Shown here: piece by piece, positions 6,487 through 62,388 of the stretch | Layout of the letters: the number at the start of each line of letters is the position of its first letter | How positions within the stretch are numbered: position 1 is the first letter of the stretch | NCBI GenBank assembly: GCA_022450155.1 | Contig: JAKUQR010000003.1 | Coordinates: 171,534-233,921 of the forward strand | Direction: 5' to 3' | Length of the DNA stretch: 62,388 nucleotides | From: Gammaproteobacteria bacterium | GTDB taxonomy: Bacteria; Pseudomonadota; Gammaproteobacteria; Arenicellales; UBA868 | Program-made: the position numbers and the translations under genes | The notes under the pieces: generated by a model | Told to the model about the DNA's origin: nothing | What the model saw: the letters and a program-made list of their open reading frames with translations, nothing else | The model's database searches: none

Positions 6487-6505
6487 GAGTCTGAGTATTC
6501 GTTAT

Positions 6506-11183: not shown

Positions 11184-11208
11184 GTTTCCTTGCTCCTCAG
11201 CGATGCGT

Positions 11209-11802
11209 TTATGTGGACTGTTCTGCGGTGCTGAAACAGCGGACACCACCAAATGAGTCAAACTCAAGCCGGGTCGGTTTGTGCCCAGTATATTCTGCAA
11301 ACTGTATCAGATCTTTCACAGATATCGTGATGGTATGGTGATTGTCCAGTGGATGCAGATGGATCACTTCGTGATCAAGCAACGAGCTATCTATAGCGAA
11401 CTGGACCGCATTTCCAGGGTCATTGATCAGTGCCAGCGGTGAGACAGCACCTGGCGATACACCGAGATACCGGCCCAGTCTGTCTTCGGATGCGAAAGAA
11501 AATCGACCGTTTGAACCCGTGTAGCCCATCGCTGCGGCGAGGGCCTTGAGGTCAATTTGGCGGTCTTCATTGCAGGTGATGAGCCACATGGCGCCTTTCT
11601 TGTTGCGCATAAACAGATTCTTGGTATAACTGCCGTGAGGGTCGGTTTCACGCAGGCTTTTGCTCTGGGCCACCGTAAACATGGCGTCATGACTGACCGT
11701 CTTGTGCTCGATTTTCAGCTCTGAAAGAAATTCAAGCAGAGCGGTATGGGAGTATGGTCTGGAGCCATCATCAAGCATCATCGATCTGTGATTGATATTC
11801 AT
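11209..11802 (-). CDS. prolyl-tRNA editing / YbaK-type aminoacyl-tRNA deacylase
   Basis: YbaK/ProX-domain proteins hydrolyse mischarged tRNAs, for example Ala- or Cys-tRNAPro, in trans. The 197-residue product has TVSHDAMFTVAQSK, the conserved KNLFMRNKKGAMWLI strand pair with the editing-site Lys, and a LGVSPGAVSPLALIND segment typical of the family. The start at 11802 (MNINHRSMMLDDG) is preferred because a longer frame runs into the divergent parC start region. It is the first gene of a run with the amidase and the Nudix hydrolase. Confidence 0.85.
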   Translation of the reverse strand: MNINHRSMMLDDGSRPYSHTALLEFLSELKIEHKTVSHDAMFTVAQSKSLRETDPHGSYTKNLFMRNKKGAMWLITCNEDRQIDLKALAAAMGYTGSNGRFSFASEDRLGRYLGVSPGAVSPLALINDPGNAVQFAIDSSLLDHEVIHLHPLDNHHTITISVKDLIQFAEYTGHKPTRLEFDSFGGVRCFSTAEQST

Positions 11803-11907
11803 TGCCGTGAGATCTGAACCAAAAAGTAGGGCGCTATAATGGCCAGGTGATGGTTGACTGTATGCGTAGCCTCGATTCTGCCACAGACACTGGAGTTTTC
11901 TTGCACG

Positions 11908-14202: not shown

Positions 14203-14207
14203 GACGG

Positions 14208-15092
14208 TCAGTTCTGTTTGCCGTGTTCTGACACGAGAACAACCAGACCGCTGCCGACCACCAGCAAAGCACCTGCGATTACTGCGGTTGTCGGCAGGTC
14301 GTGAAAAATAACCCAGCCGTAAAAAGCAGCCCAGCCCAGTGTGCTGTATTCCAGAGCACCGACGAGGTAAACCGGTGCATACTTGAAACCGTTGGTCAGA
14401 GAGTACTGACCGCCGAGGCCGATCAGACCCAGCAGGAGCATTAATGCAAAATCGTTGGCCGATGGTGGAATCCACAGGAAGGGTGCCGCCAAGGCTGAAA
14501 CAACCAGTATCAGTGCTGAGCCTGTCAGTAGCATTAATTCGGTAGATTCTGAGACCGACATGCGGCGGGTTTGTACACCGAGCGCCGCAAACATCAAGCA
14601 ACCGAACAGTGCTGCGCTAGCGCCTAACCAGTCGACCTCACTGCCGCTGGGCTGCACGATAAATATGACACCGATAAATCCGGTAATGACAGCCAGTATT
14701 TGCCGTCCGTTGGGGTGTTCTGCAAGTACGAGACCCGACAGCAGTGTCAGAAAAATCGGGTAGGCGGCAACGATCGATACCGCGTCGACCAATGGCATTC
14801 TTGAGAGGGCAAAGTAGTAGCTCAAGAACGCGACCAGATTAAAGAACGCGCGCAGTATGTGCGCCGCCGGCTTCGTGGTAGTCAATCCTTGCCAGCCATA
14901 TCGAGCGCGAACGGCGAGAAACATTAGGGGCACGCTGAGGGCGCTGCGGATCAACAGCAGCTGTAACAGCGTATAGTTGTCAGACAGCCATTTGATCAGC
15001 GCATCCTGGGTCGAAAAGAGCAGGCTGGCCAGCAGCGCAAACAGTGCACCACGCCAGTGGCGATGGTCGGGTCTTGAGTGAAGTCCAGCCAC
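14208..15092 (-). CDS. EamA/DMT-family transporter
   Basis: The 294-residue integral membrane protein shows ten predicted hydrophobic spans arranged as two repeated EamA halves (for example LFALLASLLFSTQDALIKWL and ALFGCLMFAALG). Drug/metabolite-transporter family members export amino acids, nucleosides or other metabolites, but the substrate cannot be read from sequence. It ends six bases from the parC stop in convergent orientation. Another two unrelated EamA proteins are encoded at 37775 and 38725. Confidence 0.85.
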   Translation of the reverse strand: MAGLHSRPDHRHWRGALFALLASLLFSTQDALIKWLSDNYTLLQLLLIRSALSVPLMFLAVRARYGWQGLTTTKPAAHILRAFFNLVAFLSYYFALSRMPLVDAVSIVAAYPIFLTLLSGLVLAEHPNGRQILAVITGFIGVIFIVQPSGSEVDWLGASAALFGCLMFAALGVQTRRMSVSESTELMLLTGSALILVVSALAAPFLWIPPSANDFALMLLLGLIGLGGQYSLTNGFKYAPVYLVGALEYSTLGWAAFYGWVIFHDLPTTAVIAGALLVVGSGLVVLVSEHGKQN

Positions 15093-49859: not shown

Positions 49860-49896
49860 TGATGCACCCGAAGATATCCGAACTCCCGACCGCTAA
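49860..49896 (-). repeat. decayed tRNA-Arg 3' fragment (att0)
   Basis: Aligned without gaps to 53984-54020 the first 37 bases match at 26 positions, and nearly all differences are transitions. The acceptor stem, T-loop and CCA-side order are still recognisable on the minus strand (TGCACCCG, CCGAAC, CCCGACC on plus). The CCA has become TCA. This is the expected decay of a non-functional tRNA 3' end, and lies four bases after the znuB stop. The following 290 bases to 50188 hold nothing I can name. Confidence 0.6.
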
Positions 49897-50188
49897 TAGA
49901 TGTCTCTGACCATGTTCAGACACGTGATTACGCGCGCCAGCCGTGTAAGGCTATTATTGAGGGCATCAGTACAGCCGGGCTTGGGCTACCCAATTATATG
50001 TTGGCCTGCAGTCAACATGCAGACTACTTATAGTTTTGTACATTTACATCAGATAAATCAAACTCTAAGGAGACCATTCTTTCCACTGTAAAAAATTTAA
50101 GTCGAAGGTGACGTGATACGCCACATCCTCGATTGTTTCATCAAATAGAATAGATTTAGTTTCCTATAGCAAGTAGGCGCCAACTAGG

Positions 50189-50311
50189 ATGGAATATTCA
50201 CTTACTGAGTTTGGAGGAACGCTGAAATTCATGGTTGACTTTGTCAGTGGCTGGGGAGTCGCCAACAGGAGACAGATAAATCAGGCGCTAGGGGCACTCG
50301 GCCGTGTTTAA
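50189..50311 (+). pseudogene. remnant of an HxlR-type transcriptional regulator
   Basis: Forty codons begin MEYSLTEFGGTLKFMVDFV and continue SGWGVANRRQ. The YSLTEFGxTL...W pattern is the C-terminal wing and helix of HxlR/MarR-like winged-helix proteins (usually YxLTxxGxxLxPVLxxLxxWG). The DNA-recognition helix upstream is missing and no ribosome-binding site is visible. I take it as a broken gene. Confidence 0.45.
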
Positions 50312-50443
50312 CTGTCGGAACAACCAACTAGACAGCAGAAAAGGCAATACCGATATGAAAAGTACAATCACTCCTCAGTTTTGTGATACGGGTTTGGTGC
50401 TCCTTTCGTATCTATTATTATTTCCCCGAAGGGGTATCTCCAG

Positions 50444-51166
50444 ATGAGTCTCAATGAGATCAAGGCACTCACCTTTGATACCGGTGGCACTATCCTCGAC
50501 TGGCATACTGGGTTTGCCACGGCTCTTGGCAATGCTGGGAAAATCCACCAGATCGAAAGAGACTGGGGTGGAGTAGCCAATGACTTGCGACGTCGTTCAC
50601 TAGGGAAAATGGTGAATTTGGGTGAGCACGCACCTCCTCAATACAACTTTGATGACGCGCACCGCATGGCCTTGGACGAGGTTTGTGTCGCAAATGGCTT
50701 AGATCCGTTTACTGAGAAAGAGCGCTACAGTATTTGGTGGGACGCAGTACATAACCTCACAACATGGCCGGACTTTCCCGCCGTGCTGCCAAAACTCGGC
50801 CAACGATTCATGTGTGTCTCTTTCACCATTCTAAGTTTCCGGATTGTTATGGACACTGCGAAGAGAAATGGGCTGAGTTGGGATGCGGTGCTATCGTGTG
50901 AGGCAATCGGGAAATACAAAGTACTGCCTGAAGCTTACGAGAGGACAGCACACTACTTACAACTCGAGCCTCACCAATGTTGCATGGTGGCCTGTCACAA
51001 TTGGGACCTGGATGCGGCGAAGGCTGCTGGCTTCAAGACAGCCTTTGTCCGACGTCCCGATGAATGGGGGGAAGAAGGCCCACCTGATTCCGAACCGAAC
51101 CCTAAACATGACTTAATTGTGGATAATTTTCCGGCTTTAGCTCAAGCGCTTGGGGTCGACACCTGA
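50444..51166 (+). CDS. HAD-superfamily hydrolase, haloacid dehalogenase type II-like
   Basis: The 240-residue protein has HAD motif I LTFDTGGTILDW (Asp nucleophile), motif II in SFTILSFRIV, motif III Lys in KYKVLPEAY and motif IV-like ACHNWDLDAAKAAGF. Type II (S)-2-haloacid dehalogenases have DVFGTL and a similar cap. Motif I here (DTGGT) is more like phosphatase-type members, so substrate class is open. It is followed by a hairpin. Confidence 0.8.
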   Translation: MSLNEIKALTFDTGGTILDWHTGFATALGNAGKIHQIERDWGGVANDLRRRSLGKMVNLGEHAPPQYNFDDAHRMALDEVCVANGLDPFTEKERYSIWWDAVHNLTTWPDFPAVLPKLGQRFMCVSFTILSFRIVMDTAKRNGLSWDAVLSCEAIGKYKVLPEAYERTAHYLQLEPHQCCMVACHNWDLDAAKAAGFKTAFVRRPDEWGEEGPPDSEPNPKHDLIVDNFPALAQALGVDT

Positions 51167-51197
51167 CATTTCCCTCGGTAGTAACCGAGTACGTCAG
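51163..51197. terminator. hairpin between convergent genes, part of a repeated 22-nt motif
   Basis: CTCGGT (51174-51179) pairs with ACCGAG (51184-51189), and CTGAC (51163-51167) with GTCAG (51193-51197) can close an outer stem. It lies at the HAD stop, 10 bases from the stop of the minus-strand cytidylyltransferase. No T-run follows, so it may act as a weak bidirectional terminator. The right part (51176-51197) recurs at 60052-60073 with 19 of 22 identical. Confidence 0.45.
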
Positions 51198-51206
51198 AAA
51201 ATTCAT

Positions 51207-51617
51207 CTAATTTGTCGCAGCCTTACATCTGTCAATGATGTCTGTTGTTGAGATAGCTGGTGTGTATGCCACAGTTCGGTATATACCCATCTCAATGGGG
51301 ACCTTGTACATACGGTTTTCGAGTTCTTCAGAAAGATCGTCACTGTGAACCACCAGATCGATCTGATGGCGCTTAATCCAGTTGTGATCAATAGCGAACG
51401 GAGCATCGCCGATGACTTCGTCCACATAACGACAACCCTTGACGACCGCAATCCTTTCAGCCATCGAAAGAATCGGCAATCGCTTATAGGAATTTACGAT
51501 TTTATCAGCGTGAATCCCAACCAGAAGGAAGTTACCGTATTCCCTGGCTTTTTGGAAGAAGTTGACGTGGCCATAATGAAACAGGTCAGCAACGGCGTCT
51601 ACATATACGCGTATGAT
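51207..51617 (-). CDS. cytidylyltransferase (glycerol-3-P / phosphocholine / phosphoethanolamine type) with non-standard start
   Basis: The reading frame gives RVYVDAVADLFHYGHVNFF at its N-terminus, the HxGH nucleotide-binding motif of this family, then DEVIGDAPFAID and LVVHSDD. The standard family start aligns with a codon ATC (51617) or ATA (51614). No ATG, GTG or TTG lies between an in-frame stop and the HYGH region. A GAGGAG (51624-51629) is six to nine bases before those codons. So the gene uses a rare start or has just lost its own. It would supply a CDP-alcohol for the LicD protein upstream on the same strand. Confidence 0.7.
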   Translation of the reverse strand: MIRVYVDAVADLFHYGHVNFFQKAREYGNFLLVGIHADKIVNSYKRLPILSMAERIAVVKGCRYVDEVIGDAPFAIDHNWIKRHQIDLVVHSDDLSEELENRMYKVPIEMGIYRTVAYTPAISTTDIIDRCKAATN

Positions 51618-51644
51618 TGTTCTCTCCTCAAGGTAAAGAAAAAT

Positions 51645-52555
51645 TTAAGCTGAATGTGGTTTGCCGGTCTCTGGTATCAAGGCATTACGCCTGCCCGAGG
51701 GAATCGCAGGATTGGGGGTATAGACATAATTCAAGCCGGGGACCAAGCGTTCGCCATACAAAACTTCCCGGTGATCGTCATAGACGATAGAGACTACATA
51801 ACTACCCTTCACGGGCAGGTTGAAGAAAACCCTGTATCGCTATCTGTGTTGGCATTTTCCAATCCGGTCAACACCGTTGTTGACGCGATGCCAATCTGTG
51901 CCTGATCAACTGGCAAGCCATCAAGATCGAGGACTCTGAGATAGCCGGTATGTGACGACTGTACAAAGCGGTTATTAAGGGACATCGTCCTTCTATGCTC
52001 TGGTGGAATAATGCTCTGATCGGTCAATTCCAGCACAGTCGATTCAAATACGCCGAATTCCTTTGGAACACGCCAGTCCGGACCATACCGGAGCCTGAGA
52101 TAATCCTCGGCCGGATTGGGAATCAGAAACGTTTCGCCAAGAAAATCAATCTCTTTAAGGTCCGTGTGTAAGTTGACAGGAATCTGGATGACTGGATACT
52201 GGTAAATACTTTCCCCAATGATGCGATAACAGTTCCAGTCAATCGGTACACCGTATTGTTTCATCTCGACGCAAATACCGATCTCGCTGACGATCACGTC
52301 TGGGGTAAAGCCTTTCTGGCTGAACAGGTCGACCGCCTCGTATACCTGCTCCTCGGTAAGGCCGTGCAACCCGATTACCGAGCCCACATCCAGATCATCG
52401 TCCCAAGCGATCAGGCAACCCTCTCTGACTGCTCCCAGACAGGTACCATGCCGCAAAAAGAACACAATGCCGAGTTCGTCCAGAATTTGCTTGGCTTCTT
52501 TCAGTACCGTTTCCGCAACGGTCATCCCCATTGGTTTATAAACAGTTGCGTTCAT
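51645..52555 (-). pseudogene. LicD-family phosphotransferase, frameshifted near its C-terminus
   Basis: LicD proteins transfer phosphocholine or similar groups to surface glycans. The first 248 residues (52555 to 51809) carry the nucleotidyltransferase core FLRHGTCLGAVREG and IAWDDDLDVG. At about 51826-51832 the frame breaks. A second frame continues FFNLPVKGSYVVSIVYDDHR through LVPGLNYVYTPNP to a stop at 51645, just before the cytidylyltransferase's ribosome-binding site. The join fits a one-base loss in a T4 run (AAAA on plus). It may be a real mutation, a sequencing error or a slippery site. Confidence 0.7.
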
Positions 52556-52619
52556 GCGCAGTGATCGACTTAGATATAAGCACTAAATTCGCGAAGATAA
52601 CGACTTAATCCGAATCACG

Positions 52620-53279
52620 TTATTGGGGTTGCGGCACAATTCGAATATAGGGTTTTGGCGAGTCCCAGCCGTCAGGATATTTCTCTTTAGCCTCATCGTC
52701 AGAAACGGCCGGTACGATGATGACATCCTCGCCTTGCTTCCAATTGACGGGCGTCGCGACCTTGTGTTTCGCCGTCAGCTGACAAGAATCAAGAATGCGC
52801 AAGATCTCATCGAAGTTGCGACCCGTGCTCATGGGGTACGTCACCATCGCTTTGACCTTCTTGTCGGGTCCAATGAGAAAAACAGACCGCACGGTCTGGT
52901 TATCGGCCGGCGTTCGATCCTTGGCCTCTCCACTGGCATTGGGATGCAGCATATCGTAGAGCTTTGCGATCTTGAGATCCGTGTCGCCAATCAGCGGATA
53001 ATTCACGGCGTGTCCTTGGGTCTCTTCGATGTCTTTGGACCATTCGGCGTGGTCACCCACCGAATCGACACTCAAACCGATAATCTTGCAGTTGCGCTTT
53101 TCAAATTCCGGTTTGAGTCGCGCCGCATAACCCAATTCCGTGGTGCAGACCGGCGTGAAATCTTTTGGGTGTGAGAACAAAATGGCCCAACCTTCACCGA
53201 TCCACTCGTGAAAGCTGATCGATCCTTCGGTGGTCTCGGCTGTAAAGTCTGGGGCGTCATCGCCTATGTGTAATGCCAT
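52620..53279 (-). CDS. 1-Cys peroxiredoxin (Prx6/AhpC-TSA family)
   Basis: The 219-residue protein reduces peroxides through its peroxidatic Cys in HPKDFTPVCTTELGY (near residue 45). The conserved Arg is in TVRSVFLIGPD. The C-terminal Prx6 extension with DVIIVPAVSDDEAKEKYPDG is present, and no resolving Cys position is clear, which fits the 1-Cys group. It is monocistronic. The 228 bases upstream (53280-53507) hold its AT-rich promoter region and no gene. Confidence 0.92.
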   Translation of the reverse strand: MALHIGDDAPDFTAETTEGSISFHEWIGEGWAILFSHPKDFTPVCTTELGYAARLKPEFEKRNCKIIGLSVDSVGDHAEWSKDIEETQGHAVNYPLIGDTDLKIAKLYDMLHPNASGEAKDRTPADNQTVRSVFLIGPDKKVKAMVTYPMSTGRNFDEILRILDSCQLTAKHKVATPVNWKQGEDVIIVPAVSDDEAKEKYPDGWDSPKPYIRIVPQPQ

Positions 53280-53507
53280 GTCAAACCTCTCTTAAACGTG
53301 TCAATATTGTCTATCCCGCATCGCTTGATAGTTGGTCCGATCATTCTAGTCGATAAGATACCCAGTAAAAACAGTACGATAAGGGATATATTTCATAAAA
53401 AGAACAGTTTTCCATACCCGGTAGGCTAACTAGGATGATCATCGAGTGTTTCAAGTCCATCTTTCAAGTATTTAACCTGTCGATCTAGTTCAATCTCTTA
53501 ATCTCGG

Positions 53508-53855
53508 TTGCTATCAGTTGATCACCCTCAAGCGGATATCGGACGAATATTGGCTGCGCTACGGACAGAACCGCCCACTCCAAGGTCGATAAAACAGCGT
53601 CCTCGATCGAAAAGTGACCGGGTGTCCGGTCTCGCCATCACTGATGGTCACAAGGCCTATCTCGATTTCTACGGTAATTGTTTTAGAGCAGACCACGAAG
53701 GGCAGATCGTCGAGTAGGCGGGTAGAGACCAGGAGGAGGTGCTGGTGCACCGATTCGATTTTCAGAAGGTGAAAAAATTCCGAGACTTCTGGGCTGTGTT
53801 CCGGGATCACCGGCCAGACTTGTACGGTGCCTTGACCACGCTGGACGGTGGTTGA
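53508..53855 (+). pseudogene. C-terminal remnant of a nitrilase-family (carbon-nitrogen) hydrolase with in-frame amber stop
   Basis: Reading the plus frame gives DFYGNCFRADHEGQIVE, then TAG at 53715. In the same frame it continues AGRDQEEVLVHRFDFQKVKK, FRDFWAVFRDHRPDLYG and a TGA at 53853. This is the usual tail of N-carbamoyl-putrescine amidase/nitrilase proteins. The N-terminal two thirds with the Cys-Glu-Lys triad are missing. It lies next to the tRNA fragment at 53984, probably cut by an insertion event. Confidence 0.6.
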
Positions 53856-53983
53856 TGTTCCGTATAACTGAATATTGAAGGGTGGGTTTATCCCAAAACT
53901 GGGCGCTGGATCTCTCCCATATTTTATTGTTTTACGAACAGTGTGAAATTCGGATCTCACTTCTGTCGTAAATCAAAAAGAAA

Positions 53984-54037
53984 TGGCGCGCCCGGAGGGA
54001 TTCGAACCCCCGACCACTGGTTCGAAGCCAGGTACTC
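53984..54037 (-). repeat. tRNA-Arg(UCG) 3' fragment, att1
   Basis: On the minus strand this is the 3' part of a tRNA: the anticodon loop CTTCGAA (anticodon TCG), T-loop TTCGAAT, acceptor CGGGCGC-G-CCA. It stops at GAGTACC, so the D-arm and 5' acceptor half are missing. It lacks one base in the 3' side of the anticodon stem relative to the copies at 56728 and 60169, so it is a decayed copy. Confidence 0.9.
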
Positions 54038-54144
54038 AAATATGCACTTCAACCTATAAAACTAGGGATAAGTCTACTACGGCTCTCCCATAAATTTTAG
54101 AGTTTCAGGGAGTTTTACTACTAGTTTTGGGAGTTTCTAAGACT

Positions 54145-54273
54145 TTAGTGGGACAACGGTGTGACTACTGTTGGCTTCAATCTGTAGTACTTAGCAGTAG
54201 TTGAAGTGTCAGCATGATGGAGTTTCTTGGATGCTTGACCTAACTCATCCTCAGACCCAACATAGTCCAAGGC
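54145..54273 (-). pseudogene. integrase C-terminal remnant next to att1
   Basis: About 42 codons translate to VGSEDELGQASKKLHHADTS followed by TTAKYYRLKPTVVTPLSH and a stop. This matches the end of the intact integrase at 60324 (VGSEGDLQEAADRLGHAD, then TTAKYYRLKPTVVTPL). The catalytic Tyr in KYYR is kept. An in-frame stop and then unrelated sequence lie upstream. The amidase start at 54291 follows 17 bases beyond its truncated end. Confidence 0.85.
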
Positions 54274-54290
54274 TTACAATAATTAGAGCA

Positions 54291-55499
54291 ATGCGTGTGG
54301 AAACAAAAACAATTCCCAACGCAACACTAGGTGCGTTCTGCGAAGAAAATCATGTTGCACTCATGCACACAAGCCGAGGCGTACTCGACGGCCTCACATT
54401 CGCTACCAAAGATGTGTTTCATATAGCTGGTTCACGGACAGGTTTCGGGAACCCTGACTGGATTCGAACTCATAGTGCAGAAAAAACGACTGCTCCAGTT
54501 GTCAAAAGCTTACTTGATGCTGGAGCGGATATGCTCGGACGTACTTTGACCGACGAATTGGCATATAGCCTATCTGGAGAAAACTTCCATTATGGGACAC
54601 CTATAAATTCTGCGGCACCGGACCGCATTCCAGGAGGCTCTTCAAACGGGTCTGCAGCTGCCGTGTCTGGCCAAGTAGTTGATTTTGCGCTAGGCACAGA
54701 CTGTGGTGGATCAGTGCGATTACCTGCAATCTACTGTGGAATAATGGGTATAAGACCCACACACAACCGCATTACAACTGATGGTGTGATCCCTTTCGCT
54801 CCTTCCTTCGATGTTATTGGGTGGTTTGCCTCTGACGCGACGATATTTGAAGAGGTTGGTAGCGTTTTACTAGACCAACCAGCGATGTCGCTAGATGTCA
54901 AACGGTTAATAATCGCAAAAGATACTTTTCCCCTAGTAGATTCTTCGGTAAATGAAGTCTTGAAGCCAATAATAAAATCGTTAGTTGATAAATTCGAACT
55001 AACAAAGGAAATAAATGTTAGCCAAGATAGACTAGCCCATTGGTTCGAAATATTTCGGACTATTCAAGGATCTGAAATCTGGGCCAATCGGAAACAATGG
55101 ATTAAAGAGTTTCATCCGGTTTTTGGGCCTGGTATACGCGAACGGCTTGAATGGGCATCGACGATTGACTCACAAACAATTTCCTGGGCGCACTCAGAAT
55201 ATGTTGAGATTAACAATTATCTCACCAATCTTCTCGAGCCAGATGAAATCTTATGTCTCCCGACTTCACCACGAGTTGCTCCACTAAGCGGTACTGAAAC
55301 AAATACACTTGAAATCGTATATCGGACTCAAGCAATGAACTTATTGTGCATCGCAGGACTTGGTGGCTTACCACAGATAAGTCTCCCACGAGTTACCCAA
55401 GGCGGATTACCGCTTGGATTATCATTTATTGGTGCCCCCGGTTCTGACATGAATCTACTCGCCTTGGCAGTTAATCTGGTTTCCCAACCAAGTTTCTGA
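54291..55499 (+). CDS. amidase (amidase signature family), AT-rich cargo
   Basis: The 402-residue enzyme shows the Lys in TFATKDVFHIAG, the GGSSNGSAAAV loop and the Ser in TDCGGSVRLPAIYC. The ATG at 54291 is chosen because the longer frame from 54201 runs antisense through the integrase remnant. It is smaller than most family members (about 450-500) and clearly AT-richer than its neighbours, for example around 54900-55020. The family includes AtzF/IaaH/biuret-pathway amidases; substrate is open. It appears to be acquired cargo. Confidence 0.85.
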   Translation: MRVETKTIPNATLGAFCEENHVALMHTSRGVLDGLTFATKDVFHIAGSRTGFGNPDWIRTHSAEKTTAPVVKSLLDAGADMLGRTLTDELAYSLSGENFHYGTPINSAAPDRIPGGSSNGSAAAVSGQVVDFALGTDCGGSVRLPAIYCGIMGIRPTHNRITTDGVIPFAPSFDVIGWFASDATIFEEVGSVLLDQPAMSLDVKRLIIAKDTFPLVDSSVNEVLKPIIKSLVDKFELTKEINVSQDRLAHWFEIFRTIQGSEIWANRKQWIKEFHPVFGPGIRERLEWASTIDSQTISWAHSEYVEINNYLTNLLEPDEILCLPTSPRVAPLSGTETNTLEIVYRTQAMNLLCIAGLGGLPQISLPRVTQGGLPLGLSFIGAPGSDMNLLALAVNLVSQPSF

Positions 55500-55506
55500 T
55501 CGACTC

Positions 55507-56430
55507 CTACAAACTGTCCTCAGGGTCGTCACTGGGCGGGGCGAGCTGATGTACGCCTGCTGCCTTGGCCATGTGTTTCCAGACCACGGAAAAATCCTTA
55601 CGACCCAGACCCGCCGTTCGTCCGCTCTGGTACACCTGACGCGCCAGTCCCGCGACAGGTACGGGGACACCCACATCGTCGGCGAGAGCCAGTGCCAGGC
55701 CAATGTCCTTGTACATGAGATCGAGCATAAAGCCAGGCTCATGCTGGTTTTTCAGGACCGTATTTGGAAAATGGTTCTGAAGTACCCATGTGTTGCCGCT
55801 GCTGGTCCCAACGACCTCGACAATCGTCTCCATCGAGAGACCCGCTTTCAGTCCTGTCAGAAAAGCTTCCGAGGTGGCGATCATTGAAATCCCGGTGATC
55901 ATGTTGTTGACCAGTTTGACCTTGCCCCCCATGCCGGCTTCACTGCCGGCATGAATCAGCTTATTGCCCATCACCGCCAGCACCTCGCGACAGCGGTCAA
56001 GCACGGCGGCAGGGCCACCAATCATTATCGTCAACGTGCCGTTGATGGCACCTGTCTCGCCACCGCTCACCGGGGCGTCGATCATCTGCCCTCCTGCAGA
56101 ATCAATCTCCAGCGCGAGTCGCTTTGATACCATCGGATCTATCGTGCTCATATCGATGACGAGGTGCTCGTCGCGAACCGCAGACAGCAGTCCCTGTGCG
56201 CCCAACACAACCTGTTCCACGTCTGCCGAACCCGGCAGCATGGTGATTACCGCCTCGCACTGACTCATCACCTCTACGGGATGTTCCGCCCGGACTGCAC
56301 CTTCGCCGACCAGTTCCTCGACAGCTGCTGCATTCACATCGAGCACCGTGAGTTCGTATCCTGCCTTGAGCAGGTTTTTCGCCATCGGCTTACCCATCAT
56401 GCCGACACCTATGAATCCAAGTCTCTTCAT
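55507..56430 (-). CDS. beta-hydroxyacid dehydrogenase (3-hydroxyisobutyrate dehydrogenase family)
   Basis: The 307-residue protein has MKRLGFIGVGMMGKPMAKNL, DAPVSGGETGAINGTL and the catalytic Lys in GMGGKVKLVNN. I start at 56430, behind GGGGGA; another ATG six codons upstream lacks this spacing. The gene is GC-rich, unlike the convergent amidase seven bases away, so the two cargo genes have different origins. It differs from the paralog at 7065. Substrate unknown. Confidence 0.88.
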   Translation of the reverse strand: MKRLGFIGVGMMGKPMAKNLLKAGYELTVLDVNAAAVEELVGEGAVRAEHPVEVMSQCEAVITMLPGSADVEQVVLGAQGLLSAVRDEHLVIDMSTIDPMVSKRLALEIDSAGGQMIDAPVSGGETGAINGTLTIMIGGPAAVLDRCREVLAVMGNKLIHAGSEAGMGGKVKLVNNMITGISMIATSEAFLTGLKAGLSMETIVEVVGTSSGNTWVLQNHFPNTVLKNQHEPGFMLDLMYKDIGLALALADDVGVPVPVAGLARQVYQSGRTAGLGRKDFSVVWKHMAKAAGVHQLAPPSDDPEDSL

Positions 56431-56641
56431 CGTGCTATTCCCCCTCATTCGTAATGGCGGGCAATCCAGAATTCATCAGAGCCCAGATTGCGACCGTGCA
56501 CTGAATCTGAACTGATAGGTCAACGGACAGCTCGCCAGCCTTACGAGTCTACCCGTGTCGCGATCTATGGTGGGTCGTTATAAAAGGGCGTTATTGCCTT
56601 GGCATGCGCCTACATAGGAACCATCAAATTAGCGCTGAGAA

Positions 56642-56690
56642 CCAGCTGAAATACCGAAGTTATTGGAGGATTCGGTAGTTATTGGACACC
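56642..56690 (-). repeat. short scar resembling the integrase 3' end
   Basis: AGTTATTGGAGGAT here is identical to the segment at the integrase stop in the prophage (60328-60345), and CAGCT with a few flanking bases also align. Orientation and spacing match. It lies 40 bases left of the fragment at 56728 with no tRNA copy of its own. It may be the last trace of another integrase copy; a 14-base match plus weak flanks is suggestive only. Confidence 0.35.
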
Positions 56691-56727
56691 CTACCTTTTT
56701 GTAAGGTGACCTAACTCCTTGATTTAA

Positions 56728-56782
56728 TGGCGCGCCCGGAGGGACTCGAACCCCCGACCACCTGGTTCGAAGCCAGGTACTC
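56728..56782 (-). repeat. tRNA-Arg(UCG) 3' fragment, att2
   Basis: This 55-base fragment is identical in the tRNA part to the copy at 60169. The anticodon stem (CCTGG/CCAGG), 5-base variable loop, T-arm and acceptor 3' strand with CCA are intact, but the tRNA 5' half is missing. To its left is CCTTGATTTA, also found left of att3. Confidence 0.92.
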
Positions 56783-56901
56783 AAAAGCGCACTTAAATCT
56801 ATAAATACAGGGATTATTGTAAACGAAGGTTCCCAAATGAATCAGAATTTCTAAGAGTTTTACTACTACTGTTAGAGGTTTCTCTAATTCTTTTGGGAAC
56901 T

Positions 56902-56988
56902 TTATGGGGCTACGACTGTTGGGTTTAATCTGTAGTATTTGGCAGTAGTTGAAGTGTCGGCATGACCGAGCATCTTGGATGCTTCATC
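56902..56988 (-). pseudogene. integrase C-terminal remnant next to att2
   Basis: Translation gives [20 protein letters not shown], then LNPTVVAP and a stop at 56902. It is the same integrase tail as at 54145 and 60324, with LGH and the catalytic Tyr kept. The remnant begins within three codons of the acdS stop (56984), so an illegitimate junction joined acdS to the integrase. Confidence 0.85.
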
Positions 56989-58003
56989 CATTTCTATAGG
57001 TATAACTATATCCATTTAATGCTGGCGCACCACCAAGATGGGCATACAAAACTTTTGAGCCAGAGGGAAAGTAACCTTTGCCGATGAGATCAATCATACC
57101 TTGCATTGACTTCCCCTCATAAACAGGGTCAGTGATCATCGCCTCCATTCTGGCTGCAAGTCGAATTGCATCATTCGTTTTATCACTAGGTACGCCATAA
57201 CCTGGGTAGGCGTAATCTGGATTTATGTGAACATCTTTGTCAGTGATTTCTTGCCCTAACTCAATTAGCTTCGCAGTGTTTTTTGCTATTTTCGTAACCT
57301 GTGTCCTGGTCTGATCAATTGTCCCTGATGCATCAATACCAATGACTTGGCCTGAGCGCCCGTCGGCCTTAAATCCAACAATCATTCCCGCATGAGTTGA
57401 TCCGGTCACTACACAAACGACGACATAATCGAACTGAAAACCGAGTTCTTTCTCTTGTATTCTCACTTCATCAGCAAACGCAACATATCCGAGTCCGCCA
57501 TATTTATGGACCGACGCACCCGCGGGGATACCGTACGGTATTCCACCTTCTGCTCTAACTGACTCAATTGCTTCTTGCCAGCTTTCTCTAATCCCGATAT
57601 CAAACCCATCGTCCACGATGCGAGAATCAGCTCCCATTAGTCGGGTCAGGAGAATATTTCCTACACGATCATAAACCGCGTCATCATGTGGCACCCAGCT
57701 TTCCTGTACCAGCCGACATTTCATACCGATTTTCGCAGCTGTAGCTGCAACCATACGAGTATGATTGGATTGCACACCGCCTATGGATACTAGCGTATCG
57801 GCTCCGGAAGCCAGCGCATCAGGCACAATGAATTCTAATTTCCGCAATTTATTCCCTCCCATTGCGAGGCCCGAATTGCAATCATCCCGCTTTGCGTAAA
57901 TCTTAACGCTGCCGCCACAGGCGTTTGTAAGTCTGGGCAAGTACTCAATGGGTGTGGGGCCAAACGTTAATGGATAACGCTCAAATTTTTCGGTTAAATT
58001 CAT
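56984..58003 (-). CDS. acdS: 1-aminocyclopropane-1-carboxylate (ACC) deaminase
   Basis: AcdS opens ACC, the plant ethylene precursor, to 2-oxobutyrate and ammonia. The 339-residue protein follows known AcdS closely: [14 protein letters not shown], the PLP-Lys in [22 protein letters not shown] and the family end [13 protein letters not shown]. The Glu in DPVYEGKSM and Leu in AHLGG, which separate ACC deaminase from D-cysteine desulfhydrase, are both present. It is AT-rich. An inverted repeat AGTCTT/AAGACT lies just upstream (58023-58043). Its stop abuts an integrase remnant. Confidence 0.88.
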
Positions 58004-58104
58004 AATTGGTTCTCTAATACCAAGTCTTTACAAGATTAAGACTGCAGCAACCGAAATCTCCCTAATTACAAATAGAGCAATCTAAGAAATACGAGAGTCA
58101 CTGG

Positions 58105-58215
58105 CTATAAAAACAAGGATAAGTCTACAACGAACCTCCCATTTAATTCAGATTGTCTGTAAATTTTACTGCTACCTTTTGGATTAGTTTTTGTTTCAAT
58201 GGGATAAAAGAGCTA
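58105..58215. repeat. integrase-side att-arm scar without tRNA fragment
   Basis: This segment aligns with the arm to the right of att1 (54054-54160) over about 105 bases. Shared blocks are CTATAAAA, GGATAAGTCTAC, CTCCCAT, TTTTACT and TTTTGG, with GGGA and CTACGA near the right end. No tRNA fragment precedes it and no integrase codons can be read after it. It marks another, more eroded insertion inside M2. The remaining gap to 58391 holds the isochorismatase ribosome-binding site CGGAGG and nothing else. Confidence 0.65.
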
Positions 58216-58391
58216 CGATGTATGACTGGTAAGTTAAAGCAACCCAACTGGGTATGGGTACCTAGCGTGGCGCTAAGTGAATTAATACGCGAGATAGTTC
58301 GACAGTGAGAACCGTATCGTGATGCCACCGGATATGGAATTAACTGGTCAACTCCCAAGTAATACTGTCTACAACTATTCGGAGGCCAAGC

Positions 58392-59063
58392 ATGATTGAT
58401 ACAATCGATAGAACAATGTTTCCTGAATTTTCATCACAAAATACAGCCTTACTCGTCATAGACATGAGCCTTGATTTTCTGGCAGATGGAGCTCCATTTG
58501 AAACTCAGGAGGGTCGCCAAATGATGCCAAAGCTAATCAAGTTGATTCGCCGTTGTCGCGAAATCGAGCTTCCTATCATTTATATCAACCATGTACACCA
58601 TCCGGGTGCCAAAGACATGGGAACTCTGGGAAAACGTTTTCCGACAATTCGTCAAGGTAAGGCTTTGCGGGCAGGTAGTGAAGGTGTCCAAATCTGGCCA
58701 GAAATCGCTCCACAAGCGGGTGATATTGTGATGGAGAAAATCCGTCAGTCGGGTTTTATGTATACCAGACTGGAAGCCACACTCAAGGAGTTAGAAGTGA
58801 AAAATATTTTGGTGGCCGGAGTCGCAACTGGAGCCTGCGTCGAGTGTACTGCTCGAGATGCCGTCGCTCGAGATTATTCGGTGATTGTGCTAAGTGATGT
58901 TACCTCGGCATCAGGATTGCCCGATCTTGGATGGGGAGAAGTCGACTCCGACACATTGCAGCGTGTGTTTTTGACAAATTTTGCGTATCACTTTGGCAAG
59001 GTAGCGTCAACCAACGAACTTCTCAACGGTCCTCTTGCTATTACTACTTTAAAACAGGCCTAG
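58392..59063 (+). CDS. isochorismatase-family cysteine hydrolase
   Basis: The 223-residue protein has the Asp-Lys-Cys triad: LLVIDMSLDFLADGA, VMEKIRQSGF and VATGACVECTARDA. Family members hydrolyse isochorismate, nicotinamide, N-carbamoylsarcosine, biuret or ureidoacrylate. A separate EntB-type carrier domain is absent. The ATG follows CGGAGG by six bases. It is AT-rich like acdS. With the amidase in M1 a nitrogen-compound catabolic role is possible, but that is inference. Confidence 0.85.
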   Translation: MIDTIDRTMFPEFSSQNTALLVIDMSLDFLADGAPFETQEGRQMMPKLIKLIRRCREIELPIIYINHVHHPGAKDMGTLGKRFPTIRQGKALRAGSEGVQIWPEIAPQAGDIVMEKIRQSGFMYTRLEATLKELEVKNILVAGVATGACVECTARDAVARDYSVIVLSDVTSASGLPDLGWGEVDSDTLQRVFLTNFAYHFGKVASTNELLNGPLAITTLKQA

Positions 59064-59115
59064 AGCAACAAACTAAATTAATACGGTTGAAACTTAACTT
59101 TTAAGGAGGCAAAAA

Positions 59116-59982
59116 ATGGAGCGCCGGCTCGAGCTTTCAAGTGGTCATAAGGTCTGGACAAAAACTGTGGGTGACGGGCCGGGACTTCCTCTATTGCTGC
59201 TCCATGGCGGCCCCGGCGCCGGGCATGATTACCTGGAACCGCTCGAAGCACTTGGCTCCGACCGTCCGGTGATCTTCTATGACCAGCTCGGCTGTGGAAA
59301 ATCGGAAAAACCCGAAAACCGCGCGTTGTGGACCATCGAACGCTTCGCCGACGAGGTGCAAGAGGTTCGTGACGCACTTGGTTTTGAGCGTTGCCATATC
59401 CTTGGCCAGAGCTGGGGCGGATGGCTCGGTATCGAATATATGCTTCGGCAACCGGCCGGGCTGCAGAGTTTTGTGCTGGCCTCGACCTCATCATCGATCC
59501 CGCAATTCTCCGCCGAATGCGACCGGCTGATTTCCGAGCTGCCGGAAGAGCACAGAAAGGCGCTGGAATACCATGGAGCTCGGGGCGAGTTCGAGCATGA
59601 AGCATATGCTGCGGCGGAGGAGGTTTTTTATGGCCGCCATTTGTGCCGGCTGGAAGAATGGCCGGATTGCATGTTGCGTTCGGTCGAAAATCTGCATCAC
59701 AACACGGTCTATGAATCCATCAACGGACCGAATGAATTCACTACTATCGGAAATCTGCGTTACTGGAACCGCACACCAGATCTGGCTCAGATCAAGACCC
59801 CGGTCCTGATCACCTGTGGTCGCTATGATGAGCTGGGCCCCGCCTGCGCCGCCACGATGCAGGCAGGCATCCCCAACGCAGAGGCAGTGATCTTCGAGGA
59901 ATCAGCCCACGTCGCCCATATCGAAGAGCCAGAAGCCTACAGAAAGCGCGTTTCGGAATTCTTAGCGCGAAATGACGAGTAG
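59116..59982 (+). CDS. alpha/beta hydrolase, proline iminopeptidase type
   Basis: The 288-residue enzyme has the HGGPGAGHDYLEPL oxyanion segment, the nucleophile elbow GQSWGGWLGIEY, the acid in CGRYDELGPA and the His in ESAHVAHIEEP. These are the hallmarks of proline iminopeptidase and related S33 peptidases. AAGGAGG precedes the ATG. The gene is GC-rich, unlike the isochorismatase 52 bases upstream, pointing to separate sources. It is the last gene before att3. Confidence 0.88.
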   Translation: MERRLELSSGHKVWTKTVGDGPGLPLLLLHGGPGAGHDYLEPLEALGSDRPVIFYDQLGCGKSEKPENRALWTIERFADEVQEVRDALGFERCHILGQSWGGWLGIEYMLRQPAGLQSFVLASTSSSIPQFSAECDRLISELPEEHRKALEYHGARGEFEHEAYAAAEEVFYGRHLCRLEEWPDCMLRSVENLHHNTVYESINGPNEFTTIGNLRYWNRTPDLAQIKTPVLITCGRYDELGPACAATMQAGIPNAEAVIFEESAHVAHIEEPEAYRKRVSEFLARNDE

Positions 59983-60051
59983 GGTAACGTCGTTTATGCT
60001 GATTCCCAAATGATAGACAGGGCCTTTTTTACACCGGGGTTGCGGTACTGA

Positions 60052-60073
60052 CGGTAATTACCGTGTACGTCAG
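60052..60073. repeat. 22-nt hairpin motif, second copy
   Basis: The motif includes GGTAATTACC and ACCGTGTACGTCAG. It matches 51176-51197 at 19 of 22 positions. ACGGTAATTACCGT (60051-60064) is a perfect palindrome. It lies in the right arm of M2. Further right, TTATTTGGGAACT occurs twice (60101 and 60120). Confidence 0.4.
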
Positions 60074-60168
60074 CGAGTGTTTCTGCGGCTGACATGGAAT
60101 TTATTTGGGAACTTTTGGCTTATTTGGGAACTCCTAGATTTTCAAATCGCTCTAAGTCCTTGATTTAA

Positions 60169-60223
60169 TGGCGCGCCCGGAGGGACTCGAACCCCCGACC
60201 ACCTGGTTCGAAGCCAGGTACTC
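60169..60223 (-). repeat. tRNA-Arg(UCG) 3' fragment, att3 (left end of the prophage)
   Basis: The tRNA part is identical to att2. As at the other sites, sequence to the right (AAATGCGCACTTCAATCTAT) belongs to the integrase-side arm. The 5' half of the tRNA is absent, so the functional tRNA-Arg must be at the far end of the prophage, outside the window. Confidence 0.92.
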
Positions 60224-60323
60224 AAATGCGCACTTCAATCTATGGTTATCGGCATTATTGCACAACGATTCTCCAATTAATTTTGGAGAATTGAAGAGTA
60301 ATCGCCCAGAAACAGCTAGAACG

Positions 60324-61175
60324 TTAAGAGTTATTGGAGGATAAAGGAGTAACTACGGTGGGCTTCAGTCTGTAGTACTTAGCAGTAGTTGACCTGTCAG
60401 CGTGACCGAGCCTGTCGGCAGCTTCCTGTAAATCCCCTTCAGAGCCAACCAAATTTCTGAGCGACCTCTCTGAGAATCTTATCTCTTTAGGAAACCACTT
60501 CATCCACCTTGCCCACGAGGACGAGAATGCTGTGGTGTATCTACCATTGACGAAGTACAACTTACCTTGCTGCGTATTGAAGAGATGAATAGAGGAGGGC
60601 GGTATAGCTTTTAGCTGGCTAATTACTTTTCTCAGTTCAGGTGTCCACTTATACAACGTAGTTTTACCAGAAGAATCTTCGGTCTTATGATGCGTCACCA
60701 ATAATCCTTCTGATGTTATGTTCCTGACTGTAAGCAGTAACAGATCAACCTGCCTCAAGCCCGTCATCAGCTTCAGCTTTACATAGCATTGCAACCATGG
60801 AACTGCCTTTGGAAGCATGTCTTCAACTTGCTCTATAGACTTAGAGAATGAATCTATCTGAGCAGCAACATCTACCTCTGCTGGAGATGGAACTTCAGGA
60901 GCGAACTTCTGCTCATCAACAATATCCTGCACAATGTCTTGATAATCGTATGTTGTAGGTTTCTCAGGCCAAGTAATACCACCAGTTGCTTCTTGGGTAA
61001 GTAGGTCTTTAGGAGTTCCAAAGGTAATCATTGGAGTACCGTCTGAAAGGCCAATACCCCAGCTGGGTTTCGTAACTTGTGCTGTATACGGTTGTAGTAA
61101 TCCTGTAGTTGGTACTGATATAGGTGCTAGGTAGCTATAACCTAACTCGCACAACCTTCTCTCTTCTTCGTTCAT
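60324..61175 (-). CDS. int: tyrosine recombinase / phage integrase
   Basis: The 283-residue protein has a C-terminal catalytic domain. The first Arg is in LMTGLRQVDLL, a Lys is in VTHHKTEDSSGK, box II reads RSLRN, and LGHAD and the Tyr nucleophile in TTAKYYR follow. The box II His of HxLR is replaced by Arg, and the spacing from LR to LGH is short. The N-terminal part is short and unlike the usual SAM-like core-binding domain. Start is the ATG at 61175, seven bases after AGGAG. It ends 101 bases from att3, as integrases do. Confidence 0.88.
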   Translation of the reverse strand: MNEEERRLCELGYSYLAPISVPTTGLLQPYTAQVTKPSWGIGLSDGTPMITFGTPKDLLTQEATGGITWPEKPTTYDYQDIVQDIVDEQKFAPEVPSPAEVDVAAQIDSFSKSIEQVEDMLPKAVPWLQCYVKLKLMTGLRQVDLLLLTVRNITSEGLLVTHHKTEDSSGKTTLYKWTPELRKVISQLKAIPPSSIHLFNTQQGKLYFVNGRYTTAFSSSWARWMKWFPKEIRFSERSLRNLVGSEGDLQEAADRLGHADRSTTAKYYRLKPTVVTPLSSNNS

Positions 61176-61266
61176 AGTCATTCTCCTTTTGATTGACAAT
61201 AGGGATTCGTGCCGATGCCTGAGCAACAGCTGCTAAATGTAGTAATGGGTTAGTACAGCGAGGGAG

Positions 61267-62388
61267 TCAGCCGATCATATCTAAGAAATTAGTGCCTTCG
61301 ACCTCACGGAGGATGGCAATCGTGTTAGCGGAGGTTTCATCCCAGCTTAACTCGCCTTCAGGACGAGGCTCTCCAAGAACATCTGATCTGAAATTCTGTA
61401 GTGGCTTACCCATCATATGGACAGCGACAAGACATTGCGCAAAATCGATCCGCAAGTCCTGAACGTTGTTAGCATGAACTGCAAATGCGTCGTGTACTGC
61501 TATGACTGGATACTCTGCCTTAGCCACAACCATGTGGGCTAAAGATGCGTCAACACTATGGACGAGGTTGGCTTGCAGCCCTAACTTAACTTCATTGTTA
61601 TGCAGCCTAGGAGTTACATGTCTTGCGCTTAACTGAATTCTTCTACGTCGTTCCTCCTTCGACTTCGGTACTCTAAACTGTATCTTGTCTGTATAGACTG
61701 GTCGGAAGTGAACCTCAAAACCACTCATGGTTGCCCATGCCAATTCTCCATCTTGAGGTAAGCCCCATTGCTCGATTACTTCCTTCATCTCCTTACGGAA
61801 GGTTTTAATTGTCGGCACAACTGCCTCTACTCTGCGGATACCTTCCCTAGCTAGTGCAAGCAGTTGCATATGATGAATGATGTCCGCGTAGGACCATTCC
61901 AACTTTTTATCATCTTTGAGTTCTTTGACCTTCTCGATTGCAGTTTTCTTTGAGTAGACCTGTCTAGCTGCGTCAACCGCATCTTCTTCAGATGGGTTGT
62001 CTATGCTTTCCGACTCTCCCGCAGGTACCCAGTCCTTCAGGAACGGTATTTTTGATAACTCTTCCTCAGCTATCCTCTCTGCGCCTGAGCCATAACATCT
62101 GGGTACAACAATCTTCTTCACGACCTTCCGCTTCTGCGTACCTGAAAGACCAGCTACATACTTATCCTCCCAATCTGTAGCGATCTGGTTATAGAAGTCG
62201 GACTCAACAACAAGGTTACATATCTCTGCTACATCTCTATCCCCATAGAACAATGCTAAGTGCTGTATAACACTGTTCGTCTGGTCTACTTCTATGGGTA
62301 AATGACTAATAAATCCTTTCTTACGGATCATCCGTTTCTTAGTCGTCGCGTCGCGTAACTCCATACAGGCTCTAATAAATAGGAACGG
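61267..62388 (-). CDS. T7-type single-subunit RNA polymerase, C-terminal part (runs off window)
   Basis: The frame is open to the right edge; only about 373 C-terminal residues of some 800-900 are visible. Motif A is LPIEVDQTNSVIQHLALFY (catalytic Asp). Motif B is RKVVKKIVVPRCYGSG with the Lys and Tyr at the T7 spacing. Motif C is VIAVHDAFAVHA with the second Asp, preceded by LVHSVDASLAHMV. Such polymerases transcribe the late genes of autographiviruses. The integrase begins 92 bases downstream. Confidence 0.9.
   Translation of the reverse strand, partial: PFLFIRACMELRDATTKKRMIRKKGFISHLPIEVDQTNSVIQHLALFYGDRDVAEICNLVVESDFYNQIATDWEDKYVAGLSGTQKRKVVKKIVVPRCYGSGAERIAEEELSKIPFLKDWVPAGESESIDNPSEEDAVDAARQVYSKKTAIEKVKELKDDKKLEWSYADIIHHMQLLALAREGIRRVEAVVPTIKTFRKEMKEVIEQWGLPQDGELAWATMSGFEVHFRPVYTDKIQFRVPKSKEERRRRIQLSARHVTPRLHNNEVKLGLQANLVHSVDASLAHMVVAKAEYPVIAVHDAFAVHANNVQDLRIDFAQCLVAVHMMGKPLQNFRSDVLGEPRPEGELSWDETSANTIAILREVEGTNFLDMIG

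What the first reader, a model, noticed from the sequence alone, without database searches (positions are those of the whole stretch)
49860..62388. Tandem array of tRNA-Arg 3' fragments: an accretion island next to znuB
Copies of the same tRNA-Arg(UCG) 3' half occur at 49860 (decayed), 53984, 56728 and 60169, all on the minus strand, none with a 5' half. The last copy adjoins a phage integrase and T7-type polymerase. The order decayed-to-intact from left to right is what repeated insertion at the same tRNA would give, with the oldest fragment furthest from the current tRNA. Up to four events plus at least one scar are stacked in 12.5 kb.
Basis: partly seen in the sequence, partly recalled or inferred. 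Interest (0 to 1): 0.9.

Follow-up and report, generated by a model that had tools for sequence, protein, structure and literature searches.

The report
Stacked integrase-less cassettes at tRNA-Arg
Next to one transfer-RNA gene of a marine bacterium, small blocks of metabolic genes were inserted one after another by phage-type recombination, and most blocks kept only the DNA ends that the recombinase needs while losing the recombinase gene itself.

Summary
The array is real and is an accretion island. Three tRNA-Arg(UCG) 3' fragments (53984, 56728, 60169) lie in tandem. The intact tRNA ends contig C14, whose last 77 bases equal window 60147-60223, so it lies to the right as predicted. Same-genus relatives show parts of the same locus.

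The units are not whole prophages. Only the last has an integrase (and a T7-type RNA polymerase). The others hold metabolic genes between two ends that look like attP arms: left, the last 37-40 integrase codons plus about 105 bp with two inverted sites; right, two direct sites 19 bp apart. Site sequence differs between elements, geometry does not. Unit 56728-60168 has the same site at both ends and no integrase.

In 33 family genomes I found 17 such integrase stubs in 11 genomes; 13 of 14 measurable truncations start in the last 30% of the profile.

Accretion is ordinary. An integrase-less, arm-bounded cassette array is a new variant of cis-mobilizable elements. That units still moved after losing the integrase is likelier than not in my view, but unproven: end-matching over seven units was not significant. 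The 49860 copy is statistically real but not a clean boundary.

The parts
49864..49891 (-). Copy A: decayed tRNA-Arg 3'-half-like scar between znuB and a gene remnant
   Evidence: 24 of 28 bases, 0 of 2000 shuffles; position in a spacer that G002 also has
49895..50026 (+). 5' remnant of a DDAH/ADI-like gene that follows znuB in G002
   Evidence: 95 of 132 bases identical; Pfam on the G002 gene
53984..54037 (-). Copy B: displaced tRNA-Arg(UCG) 3' fragment, nt 23-77 with one deletion
54038..54267 (-). Left end (P arm) of unit 1: about 107 bp plus a 40-codon integrase stub
   Evidence: its P1/P2 pair is weak
54201..55499 (+). Unit 1 cargo: amidase (true start uncertain)
   Evidence: Pfam Amidase
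55507..56448 (-). Unit 1 cargo: 3-hydroxyisobutyrate dehydrogenase-like
   Evidence: Pfam NAD_binding_2 and NAD_binding_11
56658..56686 (-). Right-end sites left of copy C: TCCAATAACT twice, 19 bp apart
56728..56782 (-). Copy C: displaced tRNA-Arg(UCG) 3' fragment, 55 of 55
56783..56994 (-). Left end (P arm) of unit 2: about 101 bp plus a 37-codon integrase stub with one stop; sites 56829-56840 (+) and 56891-56900 (-)
56984..58003 (-). Unit 2 cargo: PLP-dependent enzyme
   Evidence: Pfam PALP
58098..58240 (-). Relic P arm without a tRNA fragment inside unit 2
   Evidence: 73% over 79 bp to the P arm of B; site words 58136-58148 and 58198-58205
58392..59063 (+). Unit 2 cargo: isochorismatase family
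   Evidence: Pfam
59116..59982 (+). Unit 2 cargo: alpha/beta hydrolase
   Evidence: Pfam Abhydrolase_1
59972..60168 (-). Right end of unit 2; sites GTTCCCAAATAA at 60101-60112 and 60120-60131
   Evidence: with copy D 80.6% identical to C45 345-600
60169..60223 (-). Copy D: displaced tRNA-Arg(UCG) 3' fragment, 55 of 55; 60147-60223 equals the last 77 bases of contig C14
60224..60339 (-). Core-proximal P arm of the newest element; sites 60271-60281 (+) and 60329-60339 (-), the latter overlapping the last integrase codons
60324..61226 (-). Integrase (tyrosine recombinase), 300 aa
   Evidence: Pfam and PHROG
61267..62388 (-). T7-type RNA polymerase, C-terminal part, cut by the contig end
   Evidence: Pfam RNA_pol, phrog_414

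Best explanation
tRNA-Arg(UCG), lying to the right of the window, is the attachment site of a family of tyrosine integrases that recombine in its anticodon arm. Each insertion leaves a whole tRNA on the right and pushes the host's former 3' half to the left, so the array grows at the tRNA and ages leftwards. Three or four elements of this family entered here (P arms at 54038, 56783, 60224 and a relic at 58098). Only the newest still has an integrase, with a T7-type RNA polymerase, so it is probably a podovirus-like prophage. The others are cassettes: a few metabolic genes between two attP arms, the left arm including the last 37-40 integrase codons. I think it somewhat more likely than not (about 0.55) that cassettes lost the integrase before their last move and were inserted by an integrase of a related element with matching arm sites, as cis-mobilizable elements are. 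Shown: fragments, stubs, site geometry and covariation, and unit-level differences between relatives. Inferred: that the sites bind the integrase, that the cassettes move, that the newest element is a phage.
For: tRNA fragments and intact tRNA. Age order by T-arm state. Same locus in G001 and G002. Stubs: 17 in 11 of 33 family genomes; 13 of 14 truncations at profile positions 159-197 of 224, p 5e-9 under uniform breaks. P1/P2 covariation in 14 arms, 0 of 100,000 permutations. Direct repeats at 19 bp in 8 of 25 right ends against 42 of 5000 control stretches; 3 of the 20 ends not inspected beforehand, p 6e-4. GTTCCCAAA occurs four times in the window, two at each end of unit 2. Fourteen identical bases at P1 of the newest element and the right end left of copy C. 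Nearest ORF in integrase orientation at 13 of 14 stubs against 554 of 1143 random points.
Against: Left and right ends match clearly in unit 2 and the first G029 unit; over seven units matching is not significant (497 of 5040 permutations), and unit 1 has unlike ends. One unrelated pair of arms scores as high as unit 2. Five of 14 P arms, copy B among them, score near the off-diagonal mean, and 17 of 25 right ends lack the repeat at my threshold. Site windows were chosen after looking. An ORF beside a stub is not special: 1143 of 1600 random points have one as near. 4 of 17 stubs have no recognised tRNA near by. No excision, circle or transfer was seen; the polymerase is cut by the contig end and no other phage gene is visible.
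Confidence: 0.78

Rival explanations
1. Decay after arrival: every unit came with its own integrase, which was deleted later, leaving the tail by chance. The cassettes are fossils and do not move.
For: This is the published route to CIMEs (passages of PMC5704250). Five of the 17 stubs have in-frame stops. End-matching over seven units is not significant.
Against: 13 of 14 truncations cluster at positions 159-197 of 224. P1/P2 pairs stay alike within arms although the stubs do not code. The genes nearest the stubs lie in the integrase's orientation at 13 of 14.
Confidence: 0.4
2. Duplication and homologous recombination: the fragments are copies spread by unequal crossing-over and not marks of insertions.
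For: Full-length decayed tRNA copies exist in G029, G024 and G000:C45. The G007/G029 difference has its break inside homologous right-end sequence.
Against: Each fragment in the window starts at tRNA nt 23 next to its own integrase tail, and the cargo between differs.
Confidence: 0.08
3. Assembly or binning artefact: repeats at tRNA fragments joined unrelated pieces.
For: Draft assembly of 77 contigs; C14 ends, and C40 and C45 start, at or near these repeats.
Against: B, C and D lie on one contig with different cargo between them. The design recurs in ten further genomes and at the same locus in G002. Unit 2 has the same site word at both ends.
Confidence: 0.04

Closest known systems
CIME (cis-mobilizable element) accretion at a tRNA or gene end
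   Same: Elements without integrase that keep both att ends, in tandem with a later element that has one (definition seen in passages of PMC5704250)
   Different: Derived from a phage-like element and not from an ICE or IME; several small cargo units; conserved integrase tail and element-specific arm sites; mobilization not shown
Additive flexible genomic islands at tRNA genes (Alteromonas, Methylophilaceae)
   Same: One tRNA as insertion target for variable cassettes, repeated tRNA 3' ends (passages of PMC4119200, and PMC10872708)
   Different: Integrase stubs with paired arm sites are not mentioned in the passages I saw
Islander-type tRNA islands and tandems
   Same: Regenerated tRNA and displaced fragment mark the ends; 3' and, more rarely, 5' fragments (passages of PMC4383910)
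   Different: Islander asks for an integrase in every tandem member; units 1 and 2 have none
Tycheposons
   Same: tRNA border, cargo genes (secondary description in PMC10872708)
   Different: Described there as 4-200 kb with a tyrosine recombinase; units 1 and 2 are 2.7 and 3.4 kb without one. The original paper is not held
T7-like cyanophages with integrase and attP (P-SSP7, S-TIP37)
   Same: Integrase directly followed by an attP identical to part of a host tRNA, in a phage with T7-type polymerase (passages of PMC8776855; that these phages carry the polymerase is recalled)
   Different: The polymerase here has only a distant match in the phage collection (26.6%); the rest of the element is unseen; tRNA-Arg, not tRNA-Leu
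Integron cassette arrays (analogy; knowledge recalled)
   Same: Small units, recombination site just after the gene, newest unit nearest a fixed site, integrase elsewhere
   Different: Phage-type integrase and tRNA target; IntI and attC were not searched for

Membership tests
tRNA-borne accretion island | Displaced fragments of one tRNA in tandem, same strand | tested here: met
tRNA-borne accretion island | Intact target tRNA at the growing end | tested here: met
   C14 end, linked by a 77-base overlap; not on one contig
tRNA-borne accretion island | Relatives that differ by whole units at the same tRNA | tested here: met
   G023, G029, G024, G007 series; the G007 contig may be transferred or misbinned
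CIME | No integrase of its own | tested here: met
   Units 1 and 2 hold only stubs of 40 and 37 codons
CIME | Both att ends kept | tested here: met
   Clear for unit 2; unit 1 has ends of unlike type
CIME | Mobilization by a neighbouring element | not testable with these tools
   Needs reads or experiment
CIME | Descent from an ICE or IME | tested here: inconclusive
   Pfam on the eight island ORFs (five cargo, integrase, polymerase, and the amidase among the cargo) shows no conjugation gene; the only element with an integrase carries a phage-type polymerase
Tycheposon | Tyrosine recombinase in the element | tested here: not met
   Units 1 and 2 lack it; the newest element has one
T7-like prophage (newest element) | Integrase next to T7-type RNA polymerase and attP | tested here: met
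T7-like prophage (newest element) | Structural and DNA-replication genes | not testable with these tools
   Contig ends; nothing in the assembly continues it and no second polymerase match exists
Integron | IntI and attC sites | not tested
   The integrase falls in phage integrase families; attC was not searched

The most novel reading that the evidence does not exclude
A phage-based gene-cassette system. Single chromosomal genes become packed between the attP arms of tRNA-targeting T7-like phages, in the place and orientation of the integrase gene. They then spread without an integrase of their own, inserted in trans or carried in cis by prophages with matching arm sites, and pile up behind tRNA promoters with the newest gene nearest the promoter. 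It would be a functional counterpart of integrons in these marine bacteria.
Probability: 0.35. Interest if true: 0.88.

Novelty: new variant of a known kind. Interest (0 to 1): 0.6.

Why it matters
Single metabolic genes turn up in bacterial genomes with no visible vehicle. Here the vehicle leaves a recognisable trace: an integrase tail with two inverted sites on one side, two repeats 19 bp apart on the other, and a tRNA fragment. The site sequence could tell which integrase moved which unit. Island finders that ask for an integrase in every island (as Islander does for tandems) would pass over such units, so they may be more common than known. The displaced fragments also keep earlier states of the tRNA gene and so help to date the insertions.

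Tried and rejected
Rejected: copy A as the clean oldest boundary (it lies in a spacer that G002 also has). Rejected: whole prophages between the fragments (Pfam shows cargo enzymes and integrase tails only). Rejected as the sole reason for P1/P2 covariation: an RNA hairpin, because the same words recur as direct repeats at the far end of unit 2.

Results against my reading: matching of left and right ends failed over seven units (497 of 5040). In 144 comparisons of 12 left with 12 right arms, three scored 12 or more: the newest element with the right end left of C (14), unit 2 with itself (12), and one unrelated pair, G001C146a with the left flank of B (12); the highest of 150 shuffled pairs was 11. 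ORFs close to stubs are no more than gene density gives (14 of 16 against 1143 of 1600 random points). Rows dropped: I left out the arms of C47, M58k, G018, G024 (same by descent as G029), G004C95 (too short) and G002 (found later). In the truncation count I left out C40 and G001C146 (cut by contig ends) and G007C156 and G002 (not listed). The five right ends with the clearest 19-bp repeats had been seen before the test.

Led nowhere: viral-contig scans with the integrase (none, one weak relative, not followed) and the polymerase (none). The phage collection gave two distant integrases and one distant polymerase in two records. A second integrase on C40 gave one stub and one contig-cut copy. 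Paper searches for integrase-less tRNA cassettes listed nothing that I recognised from titles and abstract starts as this design; most listed papers were not opened and most subscription journals are not held.
Full report
1. What is in the sequence. The window is the right end of contig C3 of a 77-contig draft genome. Copies B (53984-54037), C (56728-56782) and D (60169-60223) are 3' parts (nt 23-77) of tRNA-Arg(UCG) on the minus strand. C and D equal the intact tRNA on contig C14; B lacks one base. Copy A is 49864-49891: 24 of 28 bases, 0 of 2000 shuffles as good.

2. Where the tRNA is. C14 ends with an intact tRNA-Arg(UCG), downstream of a moaD-like reading frame (recognised by eye). Its last 77 bases are window 60147-60223 exactly; at 60223/60224 the two part, C14 into the tRNA 5' half and C3 into the integrase side. 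That is what a shared k-mer at a fork of an assembly graph looks like (inference). The shared part includes 22 bases after the tRNA that none of the 11 other right ends printed has, so C14 probably shows cells without the newest element (inference). Nothing else in the assembly continues the right end of C3.

3. The same locus in relatives. G001 (same genus) has the C14 flank at 85-87% identity and an intact tRNA; of the 50 bases after it, 46 match the left flank of copy C. G002 (same genus) has znuB, a DDAH/ADI-like gene, a GFA gene, then a decayed tRNA-Arg fragment with P arm and integrase stub, cargo, and another fragment at the contig start. G004 (another genus) has a tRNA-Arg 3' fragment about 6 kb from znuB (ARAGORN calls a tRNA there, but only nt 19-77 match). 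So the island lies between the znu genes and the tRNA in two genera. In the window the DDAH-like gene survives as 132 bp at 49895-50026. A lies between it and znuB, in a spacer that G002 also has, so A is a scar of unclear origin. No tRNA-Arg sequence was found near znuB in the 26 relatives whose znuB was returned.

4. Age order. The T-arm of B has the state of G001 (GAATCCC), C and D that of the present tRNA (GAGTCCC), and A fits the state of some sister genera (GGGAGTTCGAATCTC). Oldest left, newest right is thus supported apart from decay. The states are not unique: G014 of another genus also has GAATCCC, and the fragment on C47 of the same genome has the older state.

5. The units. Right of B and C stands the tail of an integrase gene, 40 and 37 codons, the second with one stop. 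A further relic P arm lies at 58098-58240 without a tRNA fragment. Only D is followed by a whole integrase (300 aa) and part of a T7-type RNA polymerase. Between the ends are an amidase and a hydroxyisobutyrate dehydrogenase-like gene (unit 1), and a PLP enzyme, an isochorismatase-family protein and an alpha/beta hydrolase (unit 2).

6. The ends look like attP arms. In the P arm a site near the integrase stop codon (P1) recurs inverted about 60 bp nearer the tRNA core (P2). Its sequence differs between elements, but P1 and P2 agree within arms: over 14 arms 0 of 100,000 permutations reach the observed sum. Nine arms score 7.5 or more against an off-diagonal mean of 6.1; B, G001a, G013, G007a and G023 do not stand out. 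The windows compared were set after looking. In the window the pairs are 60329-60339/60271-60281 (D) and 56891-56900/56829-56840 (C). Right ends carry two direct copies of a site 19 bp apart, about 40 and 59 bp after the tRNA: 8 of 25 right ends against 42 of 5000 control stretches of the window. Five of the eight had been seen before the test; of the 20 others three show it (p 6e-4). The words differ (GTTCCCAAATAA, TCCAATAACT, GTTCCCATAAAT, CGATATTTT, CCCATTGAA), the spacing does not. GTTCCCAAA occurs four times in 62 kb, twice at each end of unit 2. The 14 bases ATCCTCCAATAACT at P1 of the newest element recur at the right end left of copy C, so an element of that type seems to have entered there before. 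P1 overlaps the last integrase codons, which would explain why the tail is kept. Against a general rule: end-matching over seven units was not significant (497 of 5040), and one unrelated pair of arms scores as high as unit 2.

7. A family-wide pattern. A profile search of 109 genomes of the order, a profile on fetched loci and a find in G002 gave 17 stubs in 11 of the 33 genomes of the family (list). Of 14 truncations listed for the family and not cut by a contig end, 13 start at profile positions 159-197 of 224; the exception is G012 at 119. Under uniform breaks that has p 5e-9, or 2e-8 if G024 and G029, the same by descent, count once. The profile match may stop short of the true break in decayed copies. 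Two integrases span the whole profile (D and G009:C113). Of 16 stubs with upstream sequence 14 have an ORF of at least 100 aa within 109 bp; this alone is not special, since 1143 of 1600 random points do. But 13 of these 14 ORFs point the same way as the integrase (two-sided p 0.002, 12 of 13 without the duplicate p 0.003) against 554 of 1143 random points. Downstream, 13 of 17 stubs have tRNA sequence within 330 bp: nine parallel fragments with the 3' half (that of G007C156 may be longer), two 5' halves in the opposite direction, two tRNAs that ARAGORN calls intact; four have none. Cargo tested by Pfam is enzymes, transporters or proteins without a named function.

8. Units differ singly between relatives. 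At tRNA-Arg(UCG) of another genus, G023 has a nitronate monooxygenase (NMO) gene directly after the tRNA; G029 has a transporter unit, a tRNA fragment and then NMO; G024 has the same order but its contig starts inside the transporter; G007 contig C156 has an ADH+GFA unit between two fragments before NMO. The G007 and G029 segments are 96% identical although the genera differ, while G007 has another NMO match at 68%. Contig C156 may be transferred or misbinned; I could not decide. The NMO and transporter genes match genes elsewhere in the window's own genome at 88% and 76%, so such units may carry single genes between genera.

9. Mechanism. Serial integration at the anticodon arm I hold for close to certain. 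That integrase-less units still moved is my preferred but unproven reading (about 0.55): clustered breaks and kept arms fit selection for the arms after loss of the integrase. Decay after arrival (about 0.4) is the published route to CIMEs (passages of PMC5704250). The newest element resembles T7-like cyanophages in having integrase and attP side by side; those phages integrate but formed no stable lysogens (passages of PMC8776855). A tRNA promoter can drive genes of an inserted element in ICEKp1 (abstract of PMC13023037), so expression of the first cassette from the tRNA promoter is worth testing.

10. What is known. Additive islands at a tRNA are described for Alteromonas (passages of PMC4119200) and Methylophilaceae (passages of PMC10872708). 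Islander lists 3919 islands, 125 tandems of two or more and 4 of three or more, and asks for an integrase in every tandem member (passages of PMC4383910). I therefore file this as a new variant of a known kind.

Noticed in passing
L010 (G000:C40) 530-684; L095 (G007:C186) 6466-6706; L144 (G009:C83) 5779-6060: Integrase side joined to a tRNA 5' half in the opposite direction (tRNA-Arg ACG twice, tRNA-Lys CTT once). For tRNA-Lys an intact gene lies 1.5 kb away. In G000 no other ACG tRNA was found by pattern, so that tRNA is either on missing sequence or broken. Islander lists 5' fragments as a minority; tRNA-dependent lysogeny (abstract of PMC10865867) would be an alternative.
   Followed up: partly
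L009 (G000:C45) 345-622: A second full-length tRNA-Arg(UCG) with a changed T-loop (GTTGGAG) and a mismatch in the acceptor stem, probably a pseudogene, followed by a right end with its own 19-bp repeat.
   Followed up: partly
L011 (G000:C47) 1205-1403: Another tRNA-Arg fragment whose left flank is 79% identical to that of copy B.
   Followed up: no
L012 (G000:C42) 915-2921: An M24 peptidase gene near tRNA-like fragments, with a different integrase at the contig start; about 120-bp repeats shared with C47, C13, G001:C112 and G009:C113.
   Followed up: no
L015 (G000:C2) 6815-6846: A 3' fragment like tRNA-Arg, away from any tRNA called in that stretch.
   Followed up: no
L045 (G018:C25) 6474-6711: An integrase tail directly before the 5' end of an intact tRNA-Arg(UCG) in the same direction, unlike the other junctions.
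   Followed up: no
L046 (G001:C146) 1815-3015 and L041 (G009:C113) 11024-12221: A metallo-hydrolase gene 88.6% identical between two genera, on contigs with tRNA fragments.
   Followed up: no
L010 (G000:C40) 13674-14922: A second, whole integrase of another family convergent with tRNA-Val; a 165-aa stub of it beside a tRNA-Val-like sequence in G009:C113.
   Followed up: partly
window 52155-52584: Part of a LicD-family gene 77.7% identical to another place in the same genome (C2, about 140000).
   Followed up: no
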